Origin: Fluviispira multicolorata
GTDB taxonomy: Bacteria > Bdellovibrionota_B > Oligoflexia > Silvanigrellales > Silvanigrellaceae
NCBI RefSeq assembly: GCF_009208585.1
Contig: NZ_WFLN01000008.1
Coordinates: 1-64,000 of the forward strand
Length of the DNA stretch: 64,000 nt
Direction: 5' to 3'
A program made the translations under genes and the position numbers. Below the pieces are notes generated by a model. That model saw nothing but the letters and a program-made list of their open reading frames with translations. It ran no database searches and was not told the origin of the DNA. Position 1 is the first letter of the stretch; each line of letters opens with the position of its first letter. Below are positions 51,366 through 64,000 of this stretch, in pieces.

Positions 51366-51658
51366 AATTTAATTTGATTTGAATTAATAAATTAATTAGG
51401 AAGATTTATAATTCCTGGCATTAAAATAAAGAGTGCAAAAAAATCTTTAAATTTTTCTTAAAAGTAGAAAATTTTTATTATTACTTTTAGTATTTTATAT
51501 CTATTTTGTTTAGTTAAAAAAATACATAAATAAAATGAAAATAAAGGTATGATTAAAAAATTGATTCAAGCATAAAAATAAAATAGTATACTCTTTCTTA
51601 GATATGCATAGAATTTGAGTTTCAGTTTTATATGCTAAATTCTTGGGAGGAATATTTT

Positions 51659-53446
51659 ATGATGAAATGGTGGGGCTGGGGTGATCCAAATAAGTCATTT
51701 CCAATTGAAGATAAGCCAAATTTGTGGCCTTGGATAAAAAAAACGATATCTATTTCAGAAAATAAAAAAATTGCTGAGCCAGTCAAAAGAGAAGATATCA
51801 AATTAAGTCCTGTAAACATTAGTGAAGATTTTCTTTCTGAAATAAAGCAAATTTTAAAAAATGATCAAATAAGTACAACTGAAGATGATAGACTTTTGCA
51901 TTCTTATGGCAAATCATATGCAGACTTATTTTACGTACGCAAAGGAATTGTAAAAAAGTCACCAGATATTATTTTATACCCTTTATCGCATGATGAAGTG
52001 GAAAATATTATTAAAATTGCAAATACGCATAATGTTTGTGTCATTCCATTTGGAGGGGGAACAAACATTGTGGGAGGGGTTGATCCTCGAGATCAAACTG
52101 TCACTGAAAAAGGACCTCGTTGTATTGTTACCCTCGATATGTGTCTTATGAATAAACTTATTTCAATTGATCCTCAGTCTCAGACTGCTGTTATTCAAGC
52201 AGGAGTGCTCGGACCAAAACTTGAAAAGGATTTATCTGAAAAAGGATGGGCGTTGGGGCATTTTCCTGATTCATTTGAATATTCAACTTTAGGCGGATGG
52301 CTGGCAACACGCTCAGCTGGAATGCAGTCTGATGCTTATGGTAAAATTGAAGATATGCTTGTTTCTTTAAAAATGGTAACTCCAAGTGGAACAATCATAA
52401 CAAGAACAACACCAGCATCGAGTGCAGGTCCAGATATAAATAGACTTATTGTTGGCTCAGAAGGAATATTAGGTGTTATTACTGAAGCAACAATGCGTAT
52501 TCACAGAACTCCTGCGGCAAAAGATTATCGCGGGTACCTTTTTCCAAATTTTGAAAAAGGGGTTGAAGCTATAAGGGAATGCGTAGATAAAAATTGGATT
52601 CCAAGTATGATTCGTTTTCAAGATGAAGGCGAAACTCAACTGGCTTTTAATTTAAAATCACCTAAAAAAGGCATAGAATCCATAGTACAAAAGCAATTAA
52701 AGAAAATATTATCTGTCACTGGTTATGCTCGTCCTTGCATTATGGTTGTTGGTTTTGAAGGTGATGATAAGCAAGTTCAAATCATTGCAAATGAAGCAAC
52801 AAAAATTTTAAAGAAACACAGAGCTTTTTCTTTAGGGAAAGGCATCGGAAAGACATGGTCAAAAGATAAATTTAATATTCCATATTTACGTGATTATATC
52901 ATGGACTATGGAGTGATGACCGATGTTGCTGAAACAGCTGCTGTTTGGTCAAAACTCATAAATGTGCATAAAAAAACGATCGAAGAAATGAATAAGTATT
53001 TTAAATCGCATGGAGATGGAACTGGATACATTGGTTGTCATATTTCACATACTTATAAAACGGGTGCATGCTTGTATTTTACATATGCAGCAAAACAAAT
53101 AATTGGAAAAGAAATTGAACAGTATTATGGGTATAAAAAAATAATAACTGATACATTCATGAAGAATGGAGCAACTTTAACGCATCATCATGCAGTTGGT
53201 TATGAGCATTCACCTTGGATGGAAAGTGAAATCTCATCAACGGGTTTAAAAGCTTTAAAAGGAATTAAAAACACTCTCGATCCAAAAAATATATTAAACC
53301 CTGGTAAAGTATTTCCTGTGGAAGAAGAAATGCGCTTAGGCGTTTTTGGTATTGACGCCCCTGAAATTGTTAATCAGAGCAAGAGCAGAGCTAAGAAAAG
53401 AAGTGGGCAAACAGGACGCAATTTGCACGAAGATACGATTCGTTAA
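51659..53446 (+). CDS. FAD-linked oxidase, alkyldihydroxyacetonephosphate synthase-like
   Basis: 595 aa. AGPS exchanges the acyl chain of acyl-DHAP for a fatty alcohol, making the ether bond of ether lipids. Family features: WWGWGDPNKSFP at the N-terminus, FAD-binding PCMH segment VIPFGGGTNIVGGVDP, SAGMQSDAYGKIEDM, and the active-site triple histidine in ATLTHHHAVGYEHSPWM (509-511). ATG 51659 has GGAGG 9 bp upstream; an in-frame ATG at 51632 has none. The last 36 codons overlap the convergent SDR gene. Other FAD/D-lactate dehydrogenase-like roles are possible, but HHH and the N-terminal WGWG favour AGPS. Confidence 0.85.
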   Translation: MMKWWGWGDPNKSFPIEDKPNLWPWIKKTISISENKKIAEPVKREDIKLSPVNISEDFLSEIKQILKNDQISTTEDDRLLHSYGKSYADLFYVRKGIVKKSPDIILYPLSHDEVENIIKIANTHNVCVIPFGGGTNIVGGVDPRDQTVTEKGPRCIVTLDMCLMNKLISIDPQSQTAVIQAGVLGPKLEKDLSEKGWALGHFPDSFEYSTLGGWLATRSAGMQSDAYGKIEDMLVSLKMVTPSGTIITRTTPASSAGPDINRLIVGSEGILGVITEATMRIHRTPAAKDYRGYLFPNFEKGVEAIRECVDKNWIPSMIRFQDEGETQLAFNLKSPKKGIESIVQKQLKKILSVTGYARPCIMVVGFEGDDKQVQIIANEATKILKKHRAFSLGKGIGKTWSKDKFNIPYLRDYIMDYGVMTDVAETAAVWSKLINVHKKTIEEMNKYFKSHGDGTGYIGCHISHTYKTGACLYFTYAAKQIIGKEIEQYYGYKKIITDTFMKNGATLTHHHAVGYEHSPWMESEISSTGLKALKGIKNTLDPKNILNPGKVFPVEEEMRLGVFGIDAPEIVNQSKSRAKKRSGQTGRNLHEDTIR

Positions 53447-54205
53447 TCCAGGTATGTAAATTTTATCTCCACGCATAAGGGCCTTGTAACCTTGTTCAGC
53501 AACAAAATCAGGATCCATGCCCTTTTGCTTTAGTTTACTTAGCTTATTTAAATTTTCAGAATAATATCCAACTTTAGAGCGTGAGCGAAATTCAGTTTTA
53601 GTAATTCCAGGGCATAAAAGCATTACTTTTATGCCATATTTTTTAGTTTCATAGGCAAGGGATGAGGAAAAAGAATATAAAAAGGATTTGCAGCCGCCAT
53701 AAACAGATTGAAATGGAACGGGTGTAAAAGAATACACTGAACCAACATTTAATATGTAGCCTGATTTTCGTTTTTGCATGCCAGGTAAAATCATTTTTGT
53801 AAGAGCAAGGGTTGTACTTATTTGTAAATCTACCATTTCAAGTTCTCTATTTATTTCTGTTTCTTGAAACGCCCCATGCACTCCAAAACCTGCATTATTA
53901 ATGAGAACGTCAACATCTAAAGACTCTTCTTTTAAAAATTTTTCAATTTTATTTAGTGATTCTCTTTGCGTAAGATCAACTGATAAAGTATAAACTTTTG
54001 TATTATAATTTTTATTAAGATTATACTCAATTTGGTTTAATCTTTGACTATCACGTGCAATTAATAATAAATCATAACCTTCTCGAGCAAATTTGACGGC
54101 AAAAGAATGTCCAATGCCACTGGATGCTCCTGTAATAATAGCAAAAGGTTTGCGGTGGGTATTAATTATGCGATGTGTTCTGCTCTTGAGTTCTATAAAT
54201 TTCAT
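53336..54205 (-). CDS. Short-chain dehydrogenase/reductase
   Basis: A 289-aa NAD(P)-binding oxidoreductase. Cofactor motif AIITGASSGIGHSFA (about 22-36), NNAGFGVHG, catalytic Ser in LNVGSVYSFTP and Tyr/Lys in YGGCKSFLYSF. It belongs to the classical type often found with lipid genes. Given its neighbours (AGPS-like, PlsC), it may reduce the keto group of alkyl- or acyl-DHAP, as PexRAP/Ayr1 does in eukaryotes; this is inference. The 5' end overlaps the PlsC gene by 44 bp and the 3' end overlaps the AGPS-like gene by 111 bp. Confidence 0.87.
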   Translation of the reverse strand: MKFIELKSRTHRIINTHRKPFAIITGASSGIGHSFAVKFAREGYDLLLIARDSQRLNQIEYNLNKNYNTKVYTLSVDLTQRESLNKIEKFLKEESLDVDVLINNAGFGVHGAFQETEINRELEMVDLQISTTLALTKMILPGMQKRKSGYILNVGSVYSFTPVPFQSVYGGCKSFLYSFSSSLAYETKKYGIKVMLLCPGITKTEFRSRSKVGYYSENLNKLSKLKQKGMDPDFVAEQGYKALMRGDKIYIPGLTNRIFVQIASCLPTSFLSSALALINNFRGVNTKNA

Positions 54206-55028
54206 TGCGTTTTATGACTCCTGAATTATGAGAAGAGAAATATTCTTCTTCTTGCTTTTTTATTGTTTGGGCAATTTGATTTACAATTTCACTACAACCT
54301 TCTTTCCCAAAAAGCTCTGTTGTTGGTGTTATTACATTCATTTTCATATAGAAAGTTGAATTTTTAACTGGGTAATTTGAAAATGTCTCTTGTTTATCTC
54401 CTCTAATATAAACGCAGAGAACACGGCAGTTAGGAACATTTTGGATGATTTTGCCAACTCCATAAGTTAATTGGTTTGGATCAAAATATCCTGTTCGACT
54501 TCTTTTTCCTTCTGGGAAGATGGTTACAACCTCCCCTTTTTTTAAAATTTTCTTACAGATATCCAAAATTTCATTATGATGATTGGGAGAAGCATCTCTA
54601 TGTATAAAAATGCATTTGCAGAGAAGTGCGATTAAACGATAGCGCTTTTTTTTGCCAAAAAAATCTCCAGCAGGTAAATTCCAAGAGAAGAATTTAAAAT
54701 GAAATTGGTACCAAAATATTGAAGCCAATGCCCAAATAATTAAGCAAGAATCAATAAAAGTAAGGTGATTTGAGCAAATGATAATTGGGTTATTATTTTT
54801 TATAATTTCTTTAAACTGTTTTCTGATTATTTTAATATCTTGTATTTTATATCGCAGAATATATTTAAAAATTAAAATTATCCCTCCACAAAATGGCAAA
54901 AGTACCAATGTGTTTATGACTCTTTGAAGCTTTAAACGTTCAACTGTATATTTCACAAAAATTGAAGCATTAGAATTTTTTAAACGAATTACCTCGTTTG
55001 TAGTCTTAGTGCTGTGATTTTCAGTCAT
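54162..55028 (-). CDS. 1-acyl-glycerol-3-phosphate acyltransferase-like (PlsC family)
   Basis: 288 aa. Acyltransferase motif I is NHLTFIDSCLI (H-x4-D) and motif III is FPEGKRSRTGYFDP, with a membrane segment before motif I. Family members acylate lysophosphatidic acid; with the AGPS-like gene next door, the substrate could be alkyl-glycerol phosphate or even DHAP. GGAGG lies 8 bp before the ATG. It is the first gene of the leftward pair with the SDR. Confidence 0.86.
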   Translation of the reverse strand: MTENHSTKTTNEVIRLKNSNASIFVKYTVERLKLQRVINTLVLLPFCGGIILIFKYILRYKIQDIKIIRKQFKEIIKNNNPIIICSNHLTFIDSCLIIWALASIFWYQFHFKFFSWNLPAGDFFGKKKRYRLIALLCKCIFIHRDASPNHHNEILDICKKILKKGEVVTIFPEGKRSRTGYFDPNQLTYGVGKIIQNVPNCRVLCVYIRGDKQETFSNYPVKNSTFYMKMNVITPTTELFGKEGCSEIVNQIAQTIKKQEEEYFSSHNSGVIKRNEIYRTQEQNTSHN

Positions 55029-56577: not shown

Positions 56578-57438
56578 ATGCATACGGTGGCAAGGGGTTT
56601 GATTTCTGTTTCGATTGTTGGTATTAGTTTTTTATTATTAGGTAGTTGTATAAACCCTGAAAATCGTATTGTTAAAAATTCAAAATTTACCAAAACTCAA
56701 TGTCTTGACCCTCAGTCTAAAAAAGTTCAATATTTTCCAAAATGCTCAGAATTATCTAAACCAAATGAAGTTTGCTCGTTATCAATTGAAGATCTCCTAC
56801 CCACGCAATTTACATATGGTGACTCATATGTGTTGGATATTAAAAAGAGATTCACAGGAAATCCTCTAAAAGCACAAGAATTCATCTGTTCAAAGCCACC
56901 GAGCGTGGTCATTGGTCCAAAAAGTGCAAGAGGGTTTTATTTAACAGACGGGCATCATAGAATGAAACTTGTTGAAAAGCTTATGAAAGAAAACTCAAAT
57001 ATTTTTACTATTCTCGTTAAAATTGACAAAAATATTCTTGAAAATTCAGCAGATATGGATAGAGACGTGTTTTGGCAAGAAATGCTTTTAAACAATGATG
57101 TTTATTTAAAAGACAAAGGTGTTGAAAGAACCCCTAATGAGCTCCCAAAAAATATCTTTTCAGTAAAAAATGATCCTTATCGCTCATTAGCCGGACTTAT
57201 TGCGGACGATAAATCAAAATTTTGCTTTGATCCTTCTCTTTCAAGTTACGGTAATTTTGCAGAGTTTTATTGGAGTGATTTCTTTAGGAATGTCCATGGG
57301 CTTGAAAACTATACAGATGATCATGATTTTGAAACTGTAAAGAAATCAATTCAAAATTATCGAATTCCTGGAACAAATGATGTTGTGAATATTTGCCATT
57401 TGCCGCAAGCAAAAAACTTACCTGGATATGTAAAGTAA
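56578..57438 (+). CDS. Lipoprotein with ParB-like nuclease-type domain
   Basis: 286 aa. Signal peptide with lipobox LLLGSC (cysteine 24). The mature part contains CSLSIEDLLPTQFTYGDSYV followed by PSVVIGPKSARGFYLTDGHH, with the sequence TDGHHR. This is the pattern of the ParBc_2 (putative ParB-like nuclease) family, in which the DxHHR motif is conserved. Such domains bind nucleotides or DNA; a lipidated exported version is unusual. It is separated by 165 bp from the haem protein and by 80 bp from the phytase gene, so all three could be one transcript. Confidence 0.75.
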   Translation: MHTVARGLISVSIVGISFLLLGSCINPENRIVKNSKFTKTQCLDPQSKKVQYFPKCSELSKPNEVCSLSIEDLLPTQFTYGDSYVLDIKKRFTGNPLKAQEFICSKPPSVVIGPKSARGFYLTDGHHRMKLVEKLMKENSNIFTILVKIDKNILENSADMDRDVFWQEMLLNNDVYLKDKGVERTPNELPKNIFSVKNDPYRSLAGLIADDKSKFCFDPSLSSYGNFAEFYWSDFFRNVHGLENYTDDHDFETVKKSIQNYRIPGTNDVVNICHLPQAKNLPGYVK

Positions 57439-57517
57439 CAAATTTTTATTATTACAATTGATTTAAGATTATAACTAAGATTTAATACCTTCAGTGTTTT
57501 TCATAGGGGGTATTTTA

Positions 57518-58468
57518 ATGTTTTATAAAAAAGTTTTTTCCTTCTTTGTTTTTCCTTTTTGTCTTACTGTATTGCAGCAACCTTTAAGCGCTACTGTTAG
57601 TATTGAAAATAAAGAAGATAAAAACTCTATTCTTGTCTTAGACAATATCAGCGCAAGCGATAAACCTGTTAATTTTAGAACTGCAAAAATGCTTGAAGAA
57701 AATTACAAAAATAAGGGTAATACATTTGGGTTAAATAAATTAAAGGTTTCTGGAAGCGGGCAGTTCTCTTCAGATTCACTGCAATGGATCATTAAAAATA
57801 CGATTGGTAATGTAAAAAATAATTTTATAGTTGTTGATTTAAGAGAAGAATCACATGGATTTGTTAATGGGACTCCCATTTCTTGGCTTCCTTCTCAAAA
57901 TAAAGCCTTAAATATAAAGAGTTTTCCTCAAGATGAAGAATTAAAAATAAAAGAATTGAGTGAGAAAAAGCAAGTAAAAATTCCAACAGCTACAAGTTTT
58001 AAAGAAAATGGATTTGAAGAAAGTGAAGAGGTAGAGCTTGATATTAAAAATACAATTTCAGAGGAAACTTTACTTAAAAATAATAATATAAGTTATCAAA
58101 GATTTAAGGTGACAGATCGAAGCATTCCAACGGATGAAGAAATTGAAAAATTTGTTTCTTTTGTAAAGAATTTGAATGATGATACTTGGGTACATTTTCA
58201 TTGCCATGCAGGAAAAGGGAGAGCAACATCATTTTTAGTAATGTATGATATGCTAAAAAACTCCAATAAGGTTGCATTTGAAGACATTATTAATAGGCAA
58301 GCAGCAACTAATTCGAGTAATAATTTATTGACCCATATAAAACAGGATAAAAGTGAAATTATTGAAAAGAGAGCTAAATTTCTTAAATCATTTTATTTAT
58401 ATACTAAAGCTCTTGATAACAACTACAAAGGAAAATGGAGAGAATGGGTCTTAAATAGTATTAATTAA
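57518..58468 (+). CDS. PTP-type inositol polyphosphatase (phytase), exported
   Basis: 316 aa from ATG 57518 (AGGGGGT 7 bp upstream; the frame is open to GTG 57494). Signal peptide about 1-25. Conserved features of cysteine phytases: VDLREESHGFVNGTPISWLP (about 106-125), general acid Asp in YQRFKVTDRSIPTDEEI, and the P-loop HFHCHAGKGRATSF with nucleophile C229. Family members remove phosphates from inositol polyphosphates, and some act on host phosphoinositides or phosphotyrosine. Similar proteins are found in Bdellovibrio, Legionella and pathogens. Its 3' end overlaps the convergent reductase by 4 bp. Confidence 0.9.
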   Translation: MFYKKVFSFFVFPFCLTVLQQPLSATVSIENKEDKNSILVLDNISASDKPVNFRTAKMLEENYKNKGNTFGLNKLKVSGSGQFSSDSLQWIIKNTIGNVKNNFIVVDLREESHGFVNGTPISWLPSQNKALNIKSFPQDEELKIKELSEKKQVKIPTATSFKENGFEESEEVELDIKNTISEETLLKNNNISYQRFKVTDRSIPTDEEIEKFVSFVKNLNDDTWVHFHCHAGKGRATSFLVMYDMLKNSNKVAFEDIINRQAATNSSNNLLTHIKQDKSEIIEKRAKFLKSFYLYTKALDNNYKGKWREWVLNSIN

Positions 58469-59955
58469 GTAAGTTCTTTCTTTTTTGAGGACAGTGATTT
58501 TAACTGTGGTAAACACCATCTATTAAGACCTGGAATATGAATTTCTCTCCAATATCTATCCCAATTAATTTCTGTTGGATTATATGAAAATTCTTTCTCA
58601 ACAACCTTATGAGCCATTAAATTTTCAGATTTAAAAGTATAATTATAATCATAAATGAAAGGTTTATAAACTTTTGCAATAACATCAATTGCTTTTGCTT
58701 TTCTTTTTATTGATTCTATTTTGCTATTAATACCAAATTTTGAAAGTATACGTGAAGAGTTTTTTTCTAATTTGATTTTATCCAATAAAAAAGTGACTGT
58801 TTTTTCAATTTTTGTTAAACTGGGACCAGAAAAAATATGTTTAGGTGATATAAATTTTGTTTTAGGATAAGGTAATAAAAAACCTTCTAAACGTTTTCTT
58901 TCAAAAGTTTTATAATACTTACAAATATAATCAGTGGCAAGTGCAACTGATAATGGATTGAGAGCAGAAGTTGAACTATGGTATATTTCTAAATGTTTCT
59001 GGCTTAAGAGTGCTGAACCAGCAATGGTTAAACCTCTTGCAACATAATCAACAGGAATAATATCTAAATTATGATTTGGTTTTGCCACAAGAAGGCGGTA
59101 ACGTGAACTGAGCATTTGAATAAATGGTGCTGTTCCATTAAAGTCTTCATTCCAACCTGGAAATGGATATTTTTCTGCAGATTCAACAATACTTGGCCTA
59201 AAAATACAGAGTCGATCCCGCGGTAATTTTTGTGATAATAAAATTTCGCCCAACGCTTTTGTGTATGTGTATGTATTTGGCCAACCGAGTCTTTCTGCTC
59301 TCAATGAACCAATTAATTTGAGTTCTTTATCAGTGGCGCTGCGAGAGCGTGCTCCTAATGATTCTTGCATACCCCAATTATATTCATCTTGAGCAGAAAA
59401 TTGCACGCCATTTGGCGAGATATTTTTTGATAATTTTTCAGAGACCAATCCATCAGCCATGCCTGCAACGTAACAAGTTGAGACATGTAAAAGTTTTGCT
59501 TTTTTTGTGGATAAAATAAAGTCTGATATATTTACAGCACCGCCTGTATTTGTTTGTAACATTTGATCTAAGGGGGCAATAAAACGTAAGTCAGCAGCAA
59601 AATTAACGACAAGATCAACTTCATCAATTAATTTCGCTTGAATTATTTTATTGAGTCCTAGTTTGACTGAGCATATGTCGCCAGTGATTGCTTCCACAAT
59701 TTTTAGATCTGCTAAATTATTTCCATATTTTTGGTGTAATTTTAAGAATGCAGGGCATTTTGAATACATTTCTGTAAAACGTATATTTCCTTCCTTGCCT
59801 TTACTTGGTCTGACTAGAATGTATATTTTTTTTATATTCGGTATGTAATCAACAAGCATGGAGAGCCAAACCTTACCGATAAATCCACTCCCTCCTATGA
59901 GAAGAACAGTTTTACCTCCAAAGCTTTCTTGAATGGAGAGATCAGATATCTTCAT
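58465..59955 (-). CDS. Fatty acyl-CoA/ACP reductase (FAR, male-sterility domain)
   Basis: 496 aa. NAD(P)-binding GGSGFIGKVWLSMLVDYIPN (about 21-40), IYILVRPSKGKEGNIRF, and the active-site pair Y229-x3-K233 in NTYTYTKALGE. The pattern LVRPSKG and HVSTCYVAG is that of the NAD_binding_4 family, which reduces fatty acyl thioesters to fatty alcohol via the aldehyde. The C-terminal part (about 380-480) is less conserved. The product fatty alcohol would be the substrate for the AGPS-like enzyme at 51659. Confidence 0.85.
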   Translation of the reverse strand: MKISDLSIQESFGGKTVLLIGGSGFIGKVWLSMLVDYIPNIKKIYILVRPSKGKEGNIRFTEMYSKCPAFLKLHQKYGNNLADLKIVEAITGDICSVKLGLNKIIQAKLIDEVDLVVNFAADLRFIAPLDQMLQTNTGGAVNISDFILSTKKAKLLHVSTCYVAGMADGLVSEKLSKNISPNGVQFSAQDEYNWGMQESLGARSRSATDKELKLIGSLRAERLGWPNTYTYTKALGEILLSQKLPRDRLCIFRPSIVESAEKYPFPGWNEDFNGTAPFIQMLSSRYRLLVAKPNHNLDIIPVDYVARGLTIAGSALLSQKHLEIYHSSTSALNPLSVALATDYICKYYKTFERKRLEGFLLPYPKTKFISPKHIFSGPSLTKIEKTVTFLLDKIKLEKNSSRILSKFGINSKIESIKRKAKAIDVIAKVYKPFIYDYNYTFKSENLMAHKVVEKEFSYNPTEINWDRYWREIHIPGLNRWCLPQLKSLSSKKKELT

Positions 59956-61379: not shown

Positions 61380-61682
61380 ATGCTAATCTCAATTGACTCA
61401 CTTTTAAGTCTCAATACTCCTATTGAAAATATTTCTACTTATGTCATTTTATATTGGATTGTAAGTGGTTTATTTGTGCAAATTTTTTTAATGCTCATTG
61501 ATAAAGCTCTACCTGTCGGTTTTTTTTCTCACTCAAAAGAGACGCAATTCACTCGTAGATTCATTTATTTTTTAGCTGGCGGTGCGCTTTTACCCATGCT
61601 TATTTTAATAGCTCCACCGTTTTTATTTGTATCATATTTAGGGAAAATTTTTGAAGAAAAGTTTTATAGGAAATCGTTATGA
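61380..61682 (+). CDS. Small membrane protein coupled to the methionine S-methyltransferase
   Basis: 100 aa with two hydrophobic helices (about 21-40, YVILYWIVSGLFVQIFLMLI; and about 63-88, FIYFLAGGALLPMLILIAPP) and a basic loop between. I recognise no family. ATGA overlap: its stop codon TGA (61680-61682) shares bases with the ATG (61679) of the next gene, which strongly suggests translational coupling and joint function. TGGAGGTAATATAAG lies before its ATG. A role as a membrane partner or exporter is inferred only. Confidence 0.65.
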   Translation: MLISIDSLLSLNTPIENISTYVILYWIVSGLFVQIFLMLIDKALPVGFFSHSKETQFTRRFIYFLAGGALLPMLILIAPPFLFVSYLGKIFEEKFYRKSL

Positions 61683-64000
61683 AATATGTATCTGAAGAAC
61701 AAAAAAAAAATTGGACATTTGACATTGAAGATTTTTTATCAAATTGTAAAAAATCTTCGTCAGATGCTTATGAAAATTTAAAAAATATACTCCAATTTTT
61801 AGACGATCCTTTGACTCGCGAAAAAGCAAGAGTATCTTTGACAGATCTAAATAAATATTTTTTAAAATTAGATTCTAGTCACGATGCCATTAATACATTT
61901 CATTTTTCAATTGATAAATTAATTACAGATGGTGAAGAGAATAGTCCGCACAGTCTTTTACTTTTACAGTTACCAAGTATTTTCACTCCAGAAGATTGGT
62001 CATTTACATTTTATGAAGGGCTTGCAAGATATCCAATTTCAGAATTTCATCATAGAACATTAGCGGAGCTTGGCTGTGGAAATGGTTGGATTAGTATCGC
62101 GCTTGCAAAAAAATGCTTTCCACAACATATATATGGTTTGGATATTAATCCGAGGGCAATTGTCTGCGCAAAAATTAATTTATATTTAAATGGGTTGGAT
62201 GATAAAGGAAAACCATATATTGATTCAGAAGGTAAAACTCTTTTTGATAGAGTACAGTTTCATGTCTCTGATTTATTGGAATTTTGTTTACTAAATAAAA
62301 TTCAACTGGATAAAGTAATTGGTTGTATTCCACAAGTATTAGCGCCAGATACTCATTTATTGCCAAATATAATACATGATAATGTTGAGGATGAATCTTT
62401 ATTTTCTTTAAGTAATTATTGCTCAAAACAAGGCTATATAGAAGATCAATTTGGATTAGGACTTATTGCAAGAGCTGTTGAAGAATCTCTTGAAACTATG
62501 AAACCTGCTGGAAAAATAATTTTAAATTTAGGAGGAAGACCTGGGAAGGCTGTGCTTGATAGATTATTAACACGTAGAGGTTTTAAAACATCAGTTGTTT
62601 GGAAAACAAAAATTGAGCAAGCAGGAGATACTGAAATCCTTCCCTTAGTTGAAATAGAACAAACAACTTCTCATCGATTTGAATTTTATATGGGTGCAAA
62701 TTCTGAGGAGTCTATTTCGGCTCGCACAGCATATGTTTACTCTCAAAATGGTGGGAAGGTTTTTCATTCTTTGCAAGTTGTTGAAGCAGATATGCGTGAT
62801 AATATAAAAATGAAAAAGATTCTTCGCTTATTAAAAAAAGAAGATTATGTAGCGGCTCGCAGTGGTTTTGATTTAACATATACCGATCGTTCTCTCGTCG
62901 AAGAAAAAATGTCATTTTTAGCAAAATTATCTGAAAAATTAAATAATCAAGATTCTATTGAATATCAAGATGTCCGAGGTGAAACAGGATTTAGAAGACA
63001 TATTGCTGAATATTTTAGAACATATTGGCGTGTTCCTATAACTGCAAAAAGTATTTTAGTTGCACCTTCACGTTTGTCATTTGTTAAAAACATAATTTCA
63101 ATGTATAATGTGAATAAGGTTTTAGTTGACAATGAATTTTATAAAGATTTACCTCAAGAATGGTTACATACACCAGACTCTCACAATTTAAAACAAAAAG
63201 ATATTTTTGTTTTAGAATCTCCAAAACAGAGTGAACTACTTTGTAAACTTGTTGCAACGTTTGAACCACAGGTTGTTATTTGTTCTATTTCTGAAGCTGA
63301 ATTAAGAAGTCAAGATTCATTTAGAAGATTAATTGAGACGACTCAAAAATATGGAGTTCGTTTGTTCGTTGATTTCAGTAATGGAATGGAATTATCAAGT
63401 ACCCCCCAAGTAAATGGTATTTTTGAATACATTTCCGAACAATCATTACCGTTACATGTTTCTTTATTTTGTGGCCTTATCCGTAATAGGTTATATTCTG
63501 ATTTAGAAATTGCTTTTTTAATAAGTGAGAATGATACAACATTAACTTCATTATGTAACGTCGCTGAAATTACATACAGCAGAGCTTCATTAATTATTCA
63601 AGAATATTATAATACTATTTTATTTGATCTTTTAAATTTTCATGTGCGTAATATAAAGCGTGAAAGAACTTATACACCTCGTTTACCAACTGCAGAGGGC
63701 TTGCTATTTTTAGAGAAATTTACAAGTTTTTCTAGTAATTGTACGAAATCTTTTCATCATCCTTCAATATTTTATTCCCATCCAGCCTTAGATCGAAATT
63801 CTGTACGACTTGATTACGGAGAAAATTTATTTGCGTCCCCTAATTTTTTAAAAGCAGCTATTTTTGAAGGTTTTGTGAGACAAAACATTTCGCAATCCGA
63901 AACACAGATTGAAGATGAAATATTAAATTATATAAGTAATAAATTTAATATAAAAGGTGTAAGAAGTGAAAACATTGTTGTTGCAAATGGAATAGCTCCC
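61679..64000 (+). CDS. Methionine S-methyltransferase, plant-type two-domain form (3' end outside window)
   Basis: 774 residues visible. Methyltransferase motif LAELGCGNGWISIALAKKCF (about 128-147) followed by IYGLDINPRAIVCAKINLYL, then QFGLGLIARAVEESLETMKP and ILNLGGRPGKAVLDRLL. From about residue 350 an aminotransferase-like (fold type I) part follows; its conserved RLDYGENLF segment lies near the end of the window. Plant MMT, about 1,080 aa, has this order and closely similar motifs as I remember them. It makes S-methylmethionine from methionine and AdoMet, the first step of one DMSP route. The bacterial MmtN enzymes I know are about 300 aa and lack the second part. Confidence 0.85.
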   Translation, partial: MKYVSEEQKKNWTFDIEDFLSNCKKSSSDAYENLKNILQFLDDPLTREKARVSLTDLNKYFLKLDSSHDAINTFHFSIDKLITDGEENSPHSLLLLQLPSIFTPEDWSFTFYEGLARYPISEFHHRTLAELGCGNGWISIALAKKCFPQHIYGLDINPRAIVCAKINLYLNGLDDKGKPYIDSEGKTLFDRVQFHVSDLLEFCLLNKIQLDKVIGCIPQVLAPDTHLLPNIIHDNVEDESLFSLSNYCSKQGYIEDQFGLGLIARAVEESLETMKPAGKIILNLGGRPGKAVLDRLLTRRGFKTSVVWKTKIEQAGDTEILPLVEIEQTTSHRFEFYMGANSEESISARTAYVYSQNGGKVFHSLQVVEADMRDNIKMKKILRLLKKEDYVAARSGFDLTYTDRSLVEEKMSFLAKLSEKLNNQDSIEYQDVRGETGFRRHIAEYFRTYWRVPITAKSILVAPSRLSFVKNIISMYNVNKVLVDNEFYKDLPQEWLHTPDSHNLKQKDIFVLESPKQSELLCKLVATFEPQVVICSISEAELRSQDSFRRLIETTQKYGVRLFVDFSNGMELSSTPQVNGIFEYISEQSLPLHVSLFCGLIRNRLYSDLEIAFLISENDTTLTSLCNVAEITYSRASLIIQEYYNTILFDLLNFHVRNIKRERTYTPRLPTAEGLLFLEKFTSFSSNCTKSFHHPSIFYSHPALDRNSVRLDYGENLFASPNFLKAAIFEGFVRQNISQSETQIEDEILNYISNKFNIKGVRSENIVVANGIAP

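What the first reader, a model, noticed from the sequence alone, without database searches (positions are those of the whole stretch)
61679..64000. Full-length plant-type methionine S-methyltransferase in a bacterium
The frame at the end of the window carries a methyltransferase domain and then a PLP-aminotransferase-like domain in the order found in plant MMT. It has plant-like motifs (GLDINPRA, NLYLNGLDD, GLGLIARAVEE, NLGGRPG). The bacterial S-methylmethionine enzymes I know (MmtN) contain only the first domain. Either this lineage makes S-methylmethionine (sulfur storage, osmolyte or DMSP precursor), or the fused aminotransferase part does something new.
Basis: partly seen in the sequence, partly recalled or inferred. 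Interest (0 to 1): 0.9.

Follow-up and report, generated by a model that had tools for sequence, protein, structure and literature searches.

The report
Plant-type methionine S-methyltransferase in a bacterium
This bacterium (a relative of Silvanigrella/Spirobacillus) carries a complete plant-style enzyme for making S-methylmethionine; such enzymes were already reported in its class, but the bacterial versions keep an apparently working vitamin-B6 (PLP) site in the fused aminotransferase part, whose job is unknown and now directly testable.

Summary
The open frame at 61679 is a complete 1091-aa gene, ending at base 64954 of the contig. Residues 102-368 match the solved bacterial methionine S-methyltransferase MmtN (7VVV). 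Residues 740-1076 match Aminotran_1_2.

It is not a new kind. Peng et al. 2022 (PMC9135737) already describe 'Group III' plant-like, two-domain MMTs in Oligoflexia, the class of the named relative Spirobacillus, and in Deltaproteobacteria.

What these searches add:
(1) Relatives across several phyla, including Xenococcaceae cyanobacteria, Gammaproteobacteria and Flavobacteriales.
(2) The region between the two domains is a second, degenerate aminotransferase fold, so the layout is MT / degenerate AAT / AAT.
(3) The last domain keeps the PLP lysine (K917) and other cofactor residues in all 23 bacterial proteins. In Arabidopsis MMT as I recall it, unverified, these are lost.
(4) No conserved partner genes outside the genus, and no E. 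coli-type SMM:homocysteine methyltransferase in 56 related genomes.

Best reading: an S-methylmethionine synthase fused to a PLP domain that is probably still active. Its substrate is unknown.

The parts
61679..64000 (+). MMT gene, first 774 of 1091 codons; continues outside the window to G000:C22:64954
61679..62788 (+). N-terminal methionine S-methyltransferase domain (residues 1-370; MmtN-homologous core 102-368 = 61982-62782). SAM-site equivalents: D155 (MmtN D69), S197 (S101), C216 (C121)
   Evidence: PDB 7VVV by profile E 6.9e-15; column check; pLDDT mostly above 80
62789..63757 (+). Middle region (residues 371-693): second, degenerate aminotransferase-like (fold type I) domain; position aligned to the PLP lysine is R602 here and variable in relatives
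   Evidence: AlphaFold2 model of 375-700, pLDDT 85.7; Foldseek to ACC synthases/aminotransferases E 1e-9, TM about 0.5; profile hits to aminotransferases; hhalign to the last domain, probability 73%, E 3e-5, 209 columns; variable column
63758..64000 (+). Start of the C-terminal PLP aminotransferase-type domain (residues 694-1091); the rest, with PLP lysine K917 (G000:C22:64427-64429), lies beyond the window
   Evidence: Pfam PF00155; Foldseek to prephenate/aspartate aminotransferases E 1.4e-19, TMt about 0.8; residues N850, D878, K917, R925, R1063
61380..61682 (+). 100-aa hydrophobic protein, 4-base overlap with the MMT start; conserved next to MMT in all seven MMT-bearing genomes of the genus, function unknown
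   Evidence: no Pfam family

Best explanation
The gene encodes a Group III (plant-type) methionine S-methyltransferase. The N-terminal domain binds SAM and transfers its methyl group to the sulfur of methionine, giving S-methylmethionine (SMM) and SAH, most likely by the 'proximity and desolvation' mechanism proposed for MmtN, which needs no catalytic residue (inferred from homology). The remaining two thirds is a tandem of two fold-type-I aminotransferase domains (from models and profiles). The first is degenerate. The second keeps the full PLP-anchoring set and most likely binds PLP and is catalytically competent (inferred from invariant residues). I think its most likely substrate is the amino acid made or used next door, SMM or Met. 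SMM would serve as a methyl/sulfur store or sulfonium solute, and in some relatives as a step towards DMSP.
For: MmtN homology over the whole MT domain. SAM-site equivalents D155 and C216 invariant, S197 in 22 of 23. Size and domain order as in the published Group III family, which is reported in the class of the named relative Spirobacillus cienkowskii, Oligoflexia. Full-length conservation across several phyla. AlphaFold2 of the whole protein pLDDT 87.2, pTM 0.84; C-terminal domain matches a complete aminotransferase. K917, R925, D878, Y797 identical in 23/23 and N850 in all readable sequences. dN/dS at or below about 0.15 in all three parts for every pair where it could be computed. Literature: one of four tested Group III bacteria made DMSP.
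Against: No activity was or could be measured. In my alignment the MmtN Met-binding residues E127 and R132 are not conserved (A/S/N222; variable 227), though mutants in them keep more than 50% activity with raised Km. The usual aminotransferase tyrosine next to the PLP phenol oxygen is Phe in all 23 (F881), and the partner-subunit tyrosine region is not conserved, so ordinary transaminase activity is not assured. No SMM- or DMSP-pathway genes are linked.
Confidence: 0.7

Rival explanations
1. The C-terminal part is structural or regulatory only: it sets oligomeric state or senses Met/SMM/PLP to control the methyltransferase, and catalyses nothing, in bacteria as presumably in plants. The MT part still makes SMM.
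For: The middle domain is already degenerate. Tyr225-equivalent is Phe in all. The C-terminal domain evolves fastest of the three in most pairs. Arabidopsis MMT as recalled from memory has lost the PLP lysine yet is an MMT (unverified sequence).
Against: Every bacterial homologue across several phyla keeps K917, R925, D878 and Y797, which a purely structural domain would not be expected to require.
Confidence: 0.3
2. It is a methyltransferase-PLP fusion that acts on a substrate other than methionine (another thioether or thiol amino acid), and resembles MMT only by descent.
For: MmtN Met-contact residues E127/R132 are not conserved in this alignment; no gene linkage to Met metabolism.
Against: The published Group III enzymes are filed with plant MMT, with most SAM- and Met-binding residues described as highly conserved. 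Plant and single-domain relatives are proven Met methyltransferases. The MT domain is its most conserved part.
Confidence: 0.1

Closest known systems
Group III plant-like MMT of Deltaproteobacteria and Oligoflexia (Peng et al. 2022, PMC9135737; e.g. Pseudobacteriovorax antillogorgiicola)
   Same: Domain order, size, class of host, absence of linked DMSP or Met-cycle genes
   Different: Nothing found that sets it apart; only the host genus and the operon partner differ
Plant methionine S-methyltransferase (MMT, EC 2.1.1.12)
   Same: About 115-125 kDa, MT domain followed by aminotransferase-like part; 52% identity in the MT domain to Arabidopsis MMT as recalled from memory (a lead only)
   Different: The C-terminal PLP lysine and other cofactor residues are kept in bacteria; in the recalled Arabidopsis sequence they are lost (K917->L, R925->K, N850->S, Y797->N)
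Bacterial MmtN (Group I; 7VVV, Roseovarius indicus)
   Same: Homologous methyltransferase domain, SAM-binding D and C conserved
   Different: MmtN is single-domain and its gene is clustered with DMSP genes; Met-contact residues E127/R132 differ
ACC synthase and class I/II aminotransferases (1b8g, 6f77, 1gd9)
   Same: Fold and PLP-binding lysine, aspartate, asparagine and arginines in the last domain
   Different: Tyr225-equivalent is Phe; fused in tandem behind a degenerate copy and a methyltransferase; reaction unknown

Membership tests
Group III / plant-type MMT | N-terminal methyltransferase domain homologous to MmtN | tested here: met
   Profile match to 7VVV, E 6.9e-15 over positions 94-359 of the MT profile
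Group III / plant-type MMT | Fused C-terminal aminotransferase domain in one ~115 kDa polypeptide | tested here: met
   PF00155 E 3.5e-33; 1091 aa, 124.6 kDa; Foldseek TMt about 0.8
Group III / plant-type MMT | GxGxG-type SAM motif and SAM-contact residues (MmtN D69, C121, S101) | tested here: met
   ELGCGNGW; D155 and C216 in 23/23, S197 in 22/23; L102 is replaced by D198
Group III / plant-type MMT | Met-contact residues (MmtN E127, R132, E250) | tested here: inconclusive
   E127 and R132 positions not conserved in my alignment; E250 falls in a loop that does not align; Peng et al. say most are conserved, but their supplementary alignment could not be read
Group III / plant-type MMT | Groups with plant MMT in a tree | not testable with these tools
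   No plant sequence held; an Arabidopsis sequence from memory falls among the bacterial sequences with weak support, a lead only
Group III / plant-type MMT | Makes S-methylmethionine from Met and SAM | not testable with these tools
   Needs an enzyme assay
Active class I/II PLP aminotransferase (last domain) | PLP Schiff-base lysine, Asp, Asn, phosphate Arg, carboxylate Arg | tested here: met
   K917, D878 and R925 23/23; N850 all readable; R1063 in all sequences that reach it
Active class I/II PLP aminotransferase (last domain) | Tyr225-equivalent at the PLP O3' | tested here: not met
   F881 in 23/23
SMM cycle (MMT + SMM:homocysteine methyltransferase) | Dedicated HMT/MmuM-type enzyme in the same genome | tested here: not met
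   NF007020 over cut-off in 0 of 56 related genomes, over cut-off in 1 of 14 control genomes; PF02574 matches in MMT-bearing genomes lie in frames of the size of MetH (about 1170-1250 aa) and of HMT-MTHFR fusions (about 600-660 aa)
MmtN-type DMSP gene cluster | Linked decarboxylase, aminotransferase, dehydrogenase or NRPS genes | tested here: not met
   The neighbours that were scanned are unrelated and change between lineages

The most novel reading that the evidence does not exclude
Bacterial Group III MMT is a bifunctional enzyme. The N-terminal domain makes S-methylmethionine, and the C-terminal PLP site, paired inside the same chain with a dead aminotransferase copy, converts it further, for example by transamination to 4-dimethylsulfonio-2-oxobutyrate, decarboxylation, or an ACC-synthase-like elimination releasing dimethyl sulfide. 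Land plants inherited the protein and lost the second activity.
Probability: 0.3. Interest if true: 0.75.

Novelty: new member of a known kind. Interest (0 to 1): 0.4.

Why it matters
S-methylmethionine is a major plant sulfur metabolite and a DMSP precursor, and the papers I could read do not say what the large C-terminal part of MMT does. A set of bacterial MMTs whose C-terminal domain keeps an intact PLP site gives a practical system to find out, and suggests asking whether plants got MMT from bacteria (PMC6284425 found no MMT in algae). If the bacterial domain is active, it could explain how a bacterium such as Pseudobacteriovorax makes DMSP without a linked pathway.

Tried and rejected
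(1) Single-protein scan of genome contigs gave nothing; the alignment-based scan worked. (2) Viral contigs: no relative. (3) Plasmids: no record covers most of the query; the listed hits match only the last domain. (4) A functional clue from neighbours: inside the genus MMT is followed by acetyl-CoA synthetase (present in all seven MMT-bearing genomes; in the window's genome stop and start overlap as TAATG), but that protein passes the acetate-CoA ligase equivalog cut-off and the link vanishes outside the genus, so I do not read it as a pathway. (5) SMM cycle with a dedicated HMT: not found. (6) SMM permease: AA_permease gives six generic hits, uninformative. (8) The Spirobacillus genome paper does not mention the enzyme.

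Full report
Observation. The frame at 61679 is open to the end of the window and runs on in the same contig to a stop at G000:C22:64954. The protein is 1091 aa, 124.6 kDa. Its GC content (0.306) is close to that of the window (0.317), so there is no sign of recent foreign origin. Pfam finds methyltransferase motifs around 124-175 and Aminotran_1_2 at 740-1076. Among solved structures the MT part matches MmtN of Roseovarius indicus (7VVV) over residues 102-368 (profile E 6.9e-15).

What is already known. Peng et al. 2022 (PMC9135737) divide Met S-methyltransferases into Group I (single-domain, DMSP-producing bacteria), Group II (single-domain; CPR bacteria, archaea, Adineta) and Group III (plants and some bacteria, with the aminotransferase part). 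They state that some Deltaproteobacteria and Oligoflexia carry the two-domain, plant-like form, that only one of four such strains tested, Pseudobacteriovorax antillogorgiicola, made DMSP, and that the gene is not linked to DMSP, NRPS or Met-cycling genes. The closest named relative that I found is Spirobacillus cienkowskii (59%), of Silvanigrellales in class Oligoflexia. The window protein is therefore a further member of Group III.

Distribution. In 58 genomes of the phylum, 13 encode a full-length MMT (38-100% identity): 11 of the 14 members of the window's family, and two in another family. The three family members without a full-length hit are G001, G009 and G011; two of these are incomplete (72% and 83%). 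Among named genomes full-length relatives occur in Silvanigrellales, Pseudobacteriovorax, Bacteriovoracaceae/Halobacteriovoraceae, Bdellovibrionaceae, Xenococcus PCC 7305 and another Xenococcaceae, Pleionea and a second gammaproteobacterium, a Flavobacteriales MAG and a Thermoanaerobaculia MAG; a Planctomycetota MAG has one cut off by its contig end. The scan used two short peptide patterns, so it is a lower bound. In a tree the named phyla do not all form single groups, which fits transfer between lineages but does not prove it; many records are MAGs with vague names.

Three parts, not two. The published description is MT plus aminotransferase. The 320 residues between the two match no Pfam family in the window protein. 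A profile of this region nevertheless finds almost only PLP fold-type-I enzymes among solved structures, though weakly, best E 0.001. It aligns to the last domain with hhalign at 73% probability and E 3e-5 over 209 columns. Modelled alone (pLDDT 85.7), it matches ACC synthases and aspartate aminotransferases (Foldseek E 1e-9, TM about 0.5). So the layout is methyltransferase / aminotransferase-like / aminotransferase. In the middle copy the residue aligned to the PLP lysine is R602 and varies (R, H, Y, K, N, Q) among relatives, and the one aligned to the phosphate arginine also varies, while the aspartate D565 is invariant. I call it degenerate, with the caution that about half of the relatives have a lysine there.

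The last domain looks alive in bacteria. By alignment to solved aminotransferases, N850, D878, K917, R925 and R1063 are the equivalents of aspartate aminotransferase N194, D222, K258, R266 and R386. K917, D878, R925 and the stacking residue Y797 are identical in all 23 bacterial sequences, including cyanobacterial, flavobacterial and planctomycetal ones. The equivalent of Y225 is phenylalanine in all 23, and the usual partner-chain tyrosine region is not conserved, so a plain transaminase reaction cannot be assumed. Purifying selection holds in all three parts: dN/dS is 0.04-0.15 in the pairs where it could be computed; dS is often near or past saturation and three pairs gave no value in one or more parts. 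The last domain is the least constrained in most pairs.

Comparison with plants (lead only). No plant sequence is held by the tools. If that recall is right, the plant domain is a pseudoenzyme descended from a PLP enzyme. PMC6284425 reports that MMT was not found in algae and appeared with land plants, which would fit acquisition from bacteria. Neither point is shown here.

Neighbourhood and pathway. In all seven MMT-bearing genomes of the genus the order is (outer-membrane-like protein, reductase) / 100-aa hydrophobic protein / MMT / acetyl-CoA synthetase. In the window's genome the MMT stop and the acetyl-CoA synthetase start overlap as TAATG. The latter passes the acetate-CoA ligase equivalog cut-off and looks ordinary. 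In other lineages the scanned neighbours are unrelated to sulfur metabolism. No E. coli-type SMM:homocysteine methyltransferase reaches its cut-off in any of 56 related genomes; the S-methyl_trans matches in MMT-bearing genomes lie in frames the size of MetH and of HMT-MTHFR fusions, the latter also found in relatives without MMT. Whether a fusion of that type can use SMM was not tested.

Mechanism, step by step. Shown: complete gene, homology of each part, conserved residues, selection, predicted fold. Inferred from family knowledge: SAM-dependent methylation of Met to SMM. Inferred from residues: PLP binding by the last domain. Open: what it catalyses, if anything. SMM is a natural candidate substrate because it is made in the same chain and because ACC synthase, a same-fold enzyme among the structural matches, acts on the related sulfonium SAM; this is an idea, not a result.

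Verdict. The part worth following is the conserved PLP site of the bacterial C-terminal domain.

Noticed in passing
window 51632-55028 and 58465-59955: A FAD-linked oxidase (FAD_binding_4/FAD-oxidase_C), an SDR, a PlsC-type acyltransferase and a NAD_binding_4 fatty-acyl-reductase-like protein lie close together; the set would fit bacterial ether-lipid synthesis (alkyl-DHAP synthase-like), from memory and untested.
   Followed up: partly
window 57494-58468 (+): PTP-like phytase domain protein with an HCHAGKGRA active-site motif; below cut-off it resembles the XopH type III effector family.
   Followed up: no
L002:6037-7065 (G000:C22, just outside the window): Class I terpene synthase two genes downstream of MMT; also at this place in G005 and, weakly, G006, but not matched in the other regions of the genus.
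   Followed up: partly
window 56578-57438 (+): ParBc_2 putative ParB-like nuclease domain in a protein with a lipoprotein-like N-terminus.
   Followed up: no
L041:13216-16926 and L045:11354-15133: A 1236-1259 aa protein that overlaps the MMT stop codon in Bacteriovoracaceae/Halobacteriovoraceae; the L041 copy matches no Pfam family.
   Followed up: partly
L046:9248-12314: MMT in Bacteriovoracaceae UBA1018 is split over two overlapping frames, a frameshift or assembly error.
   Followed up: no
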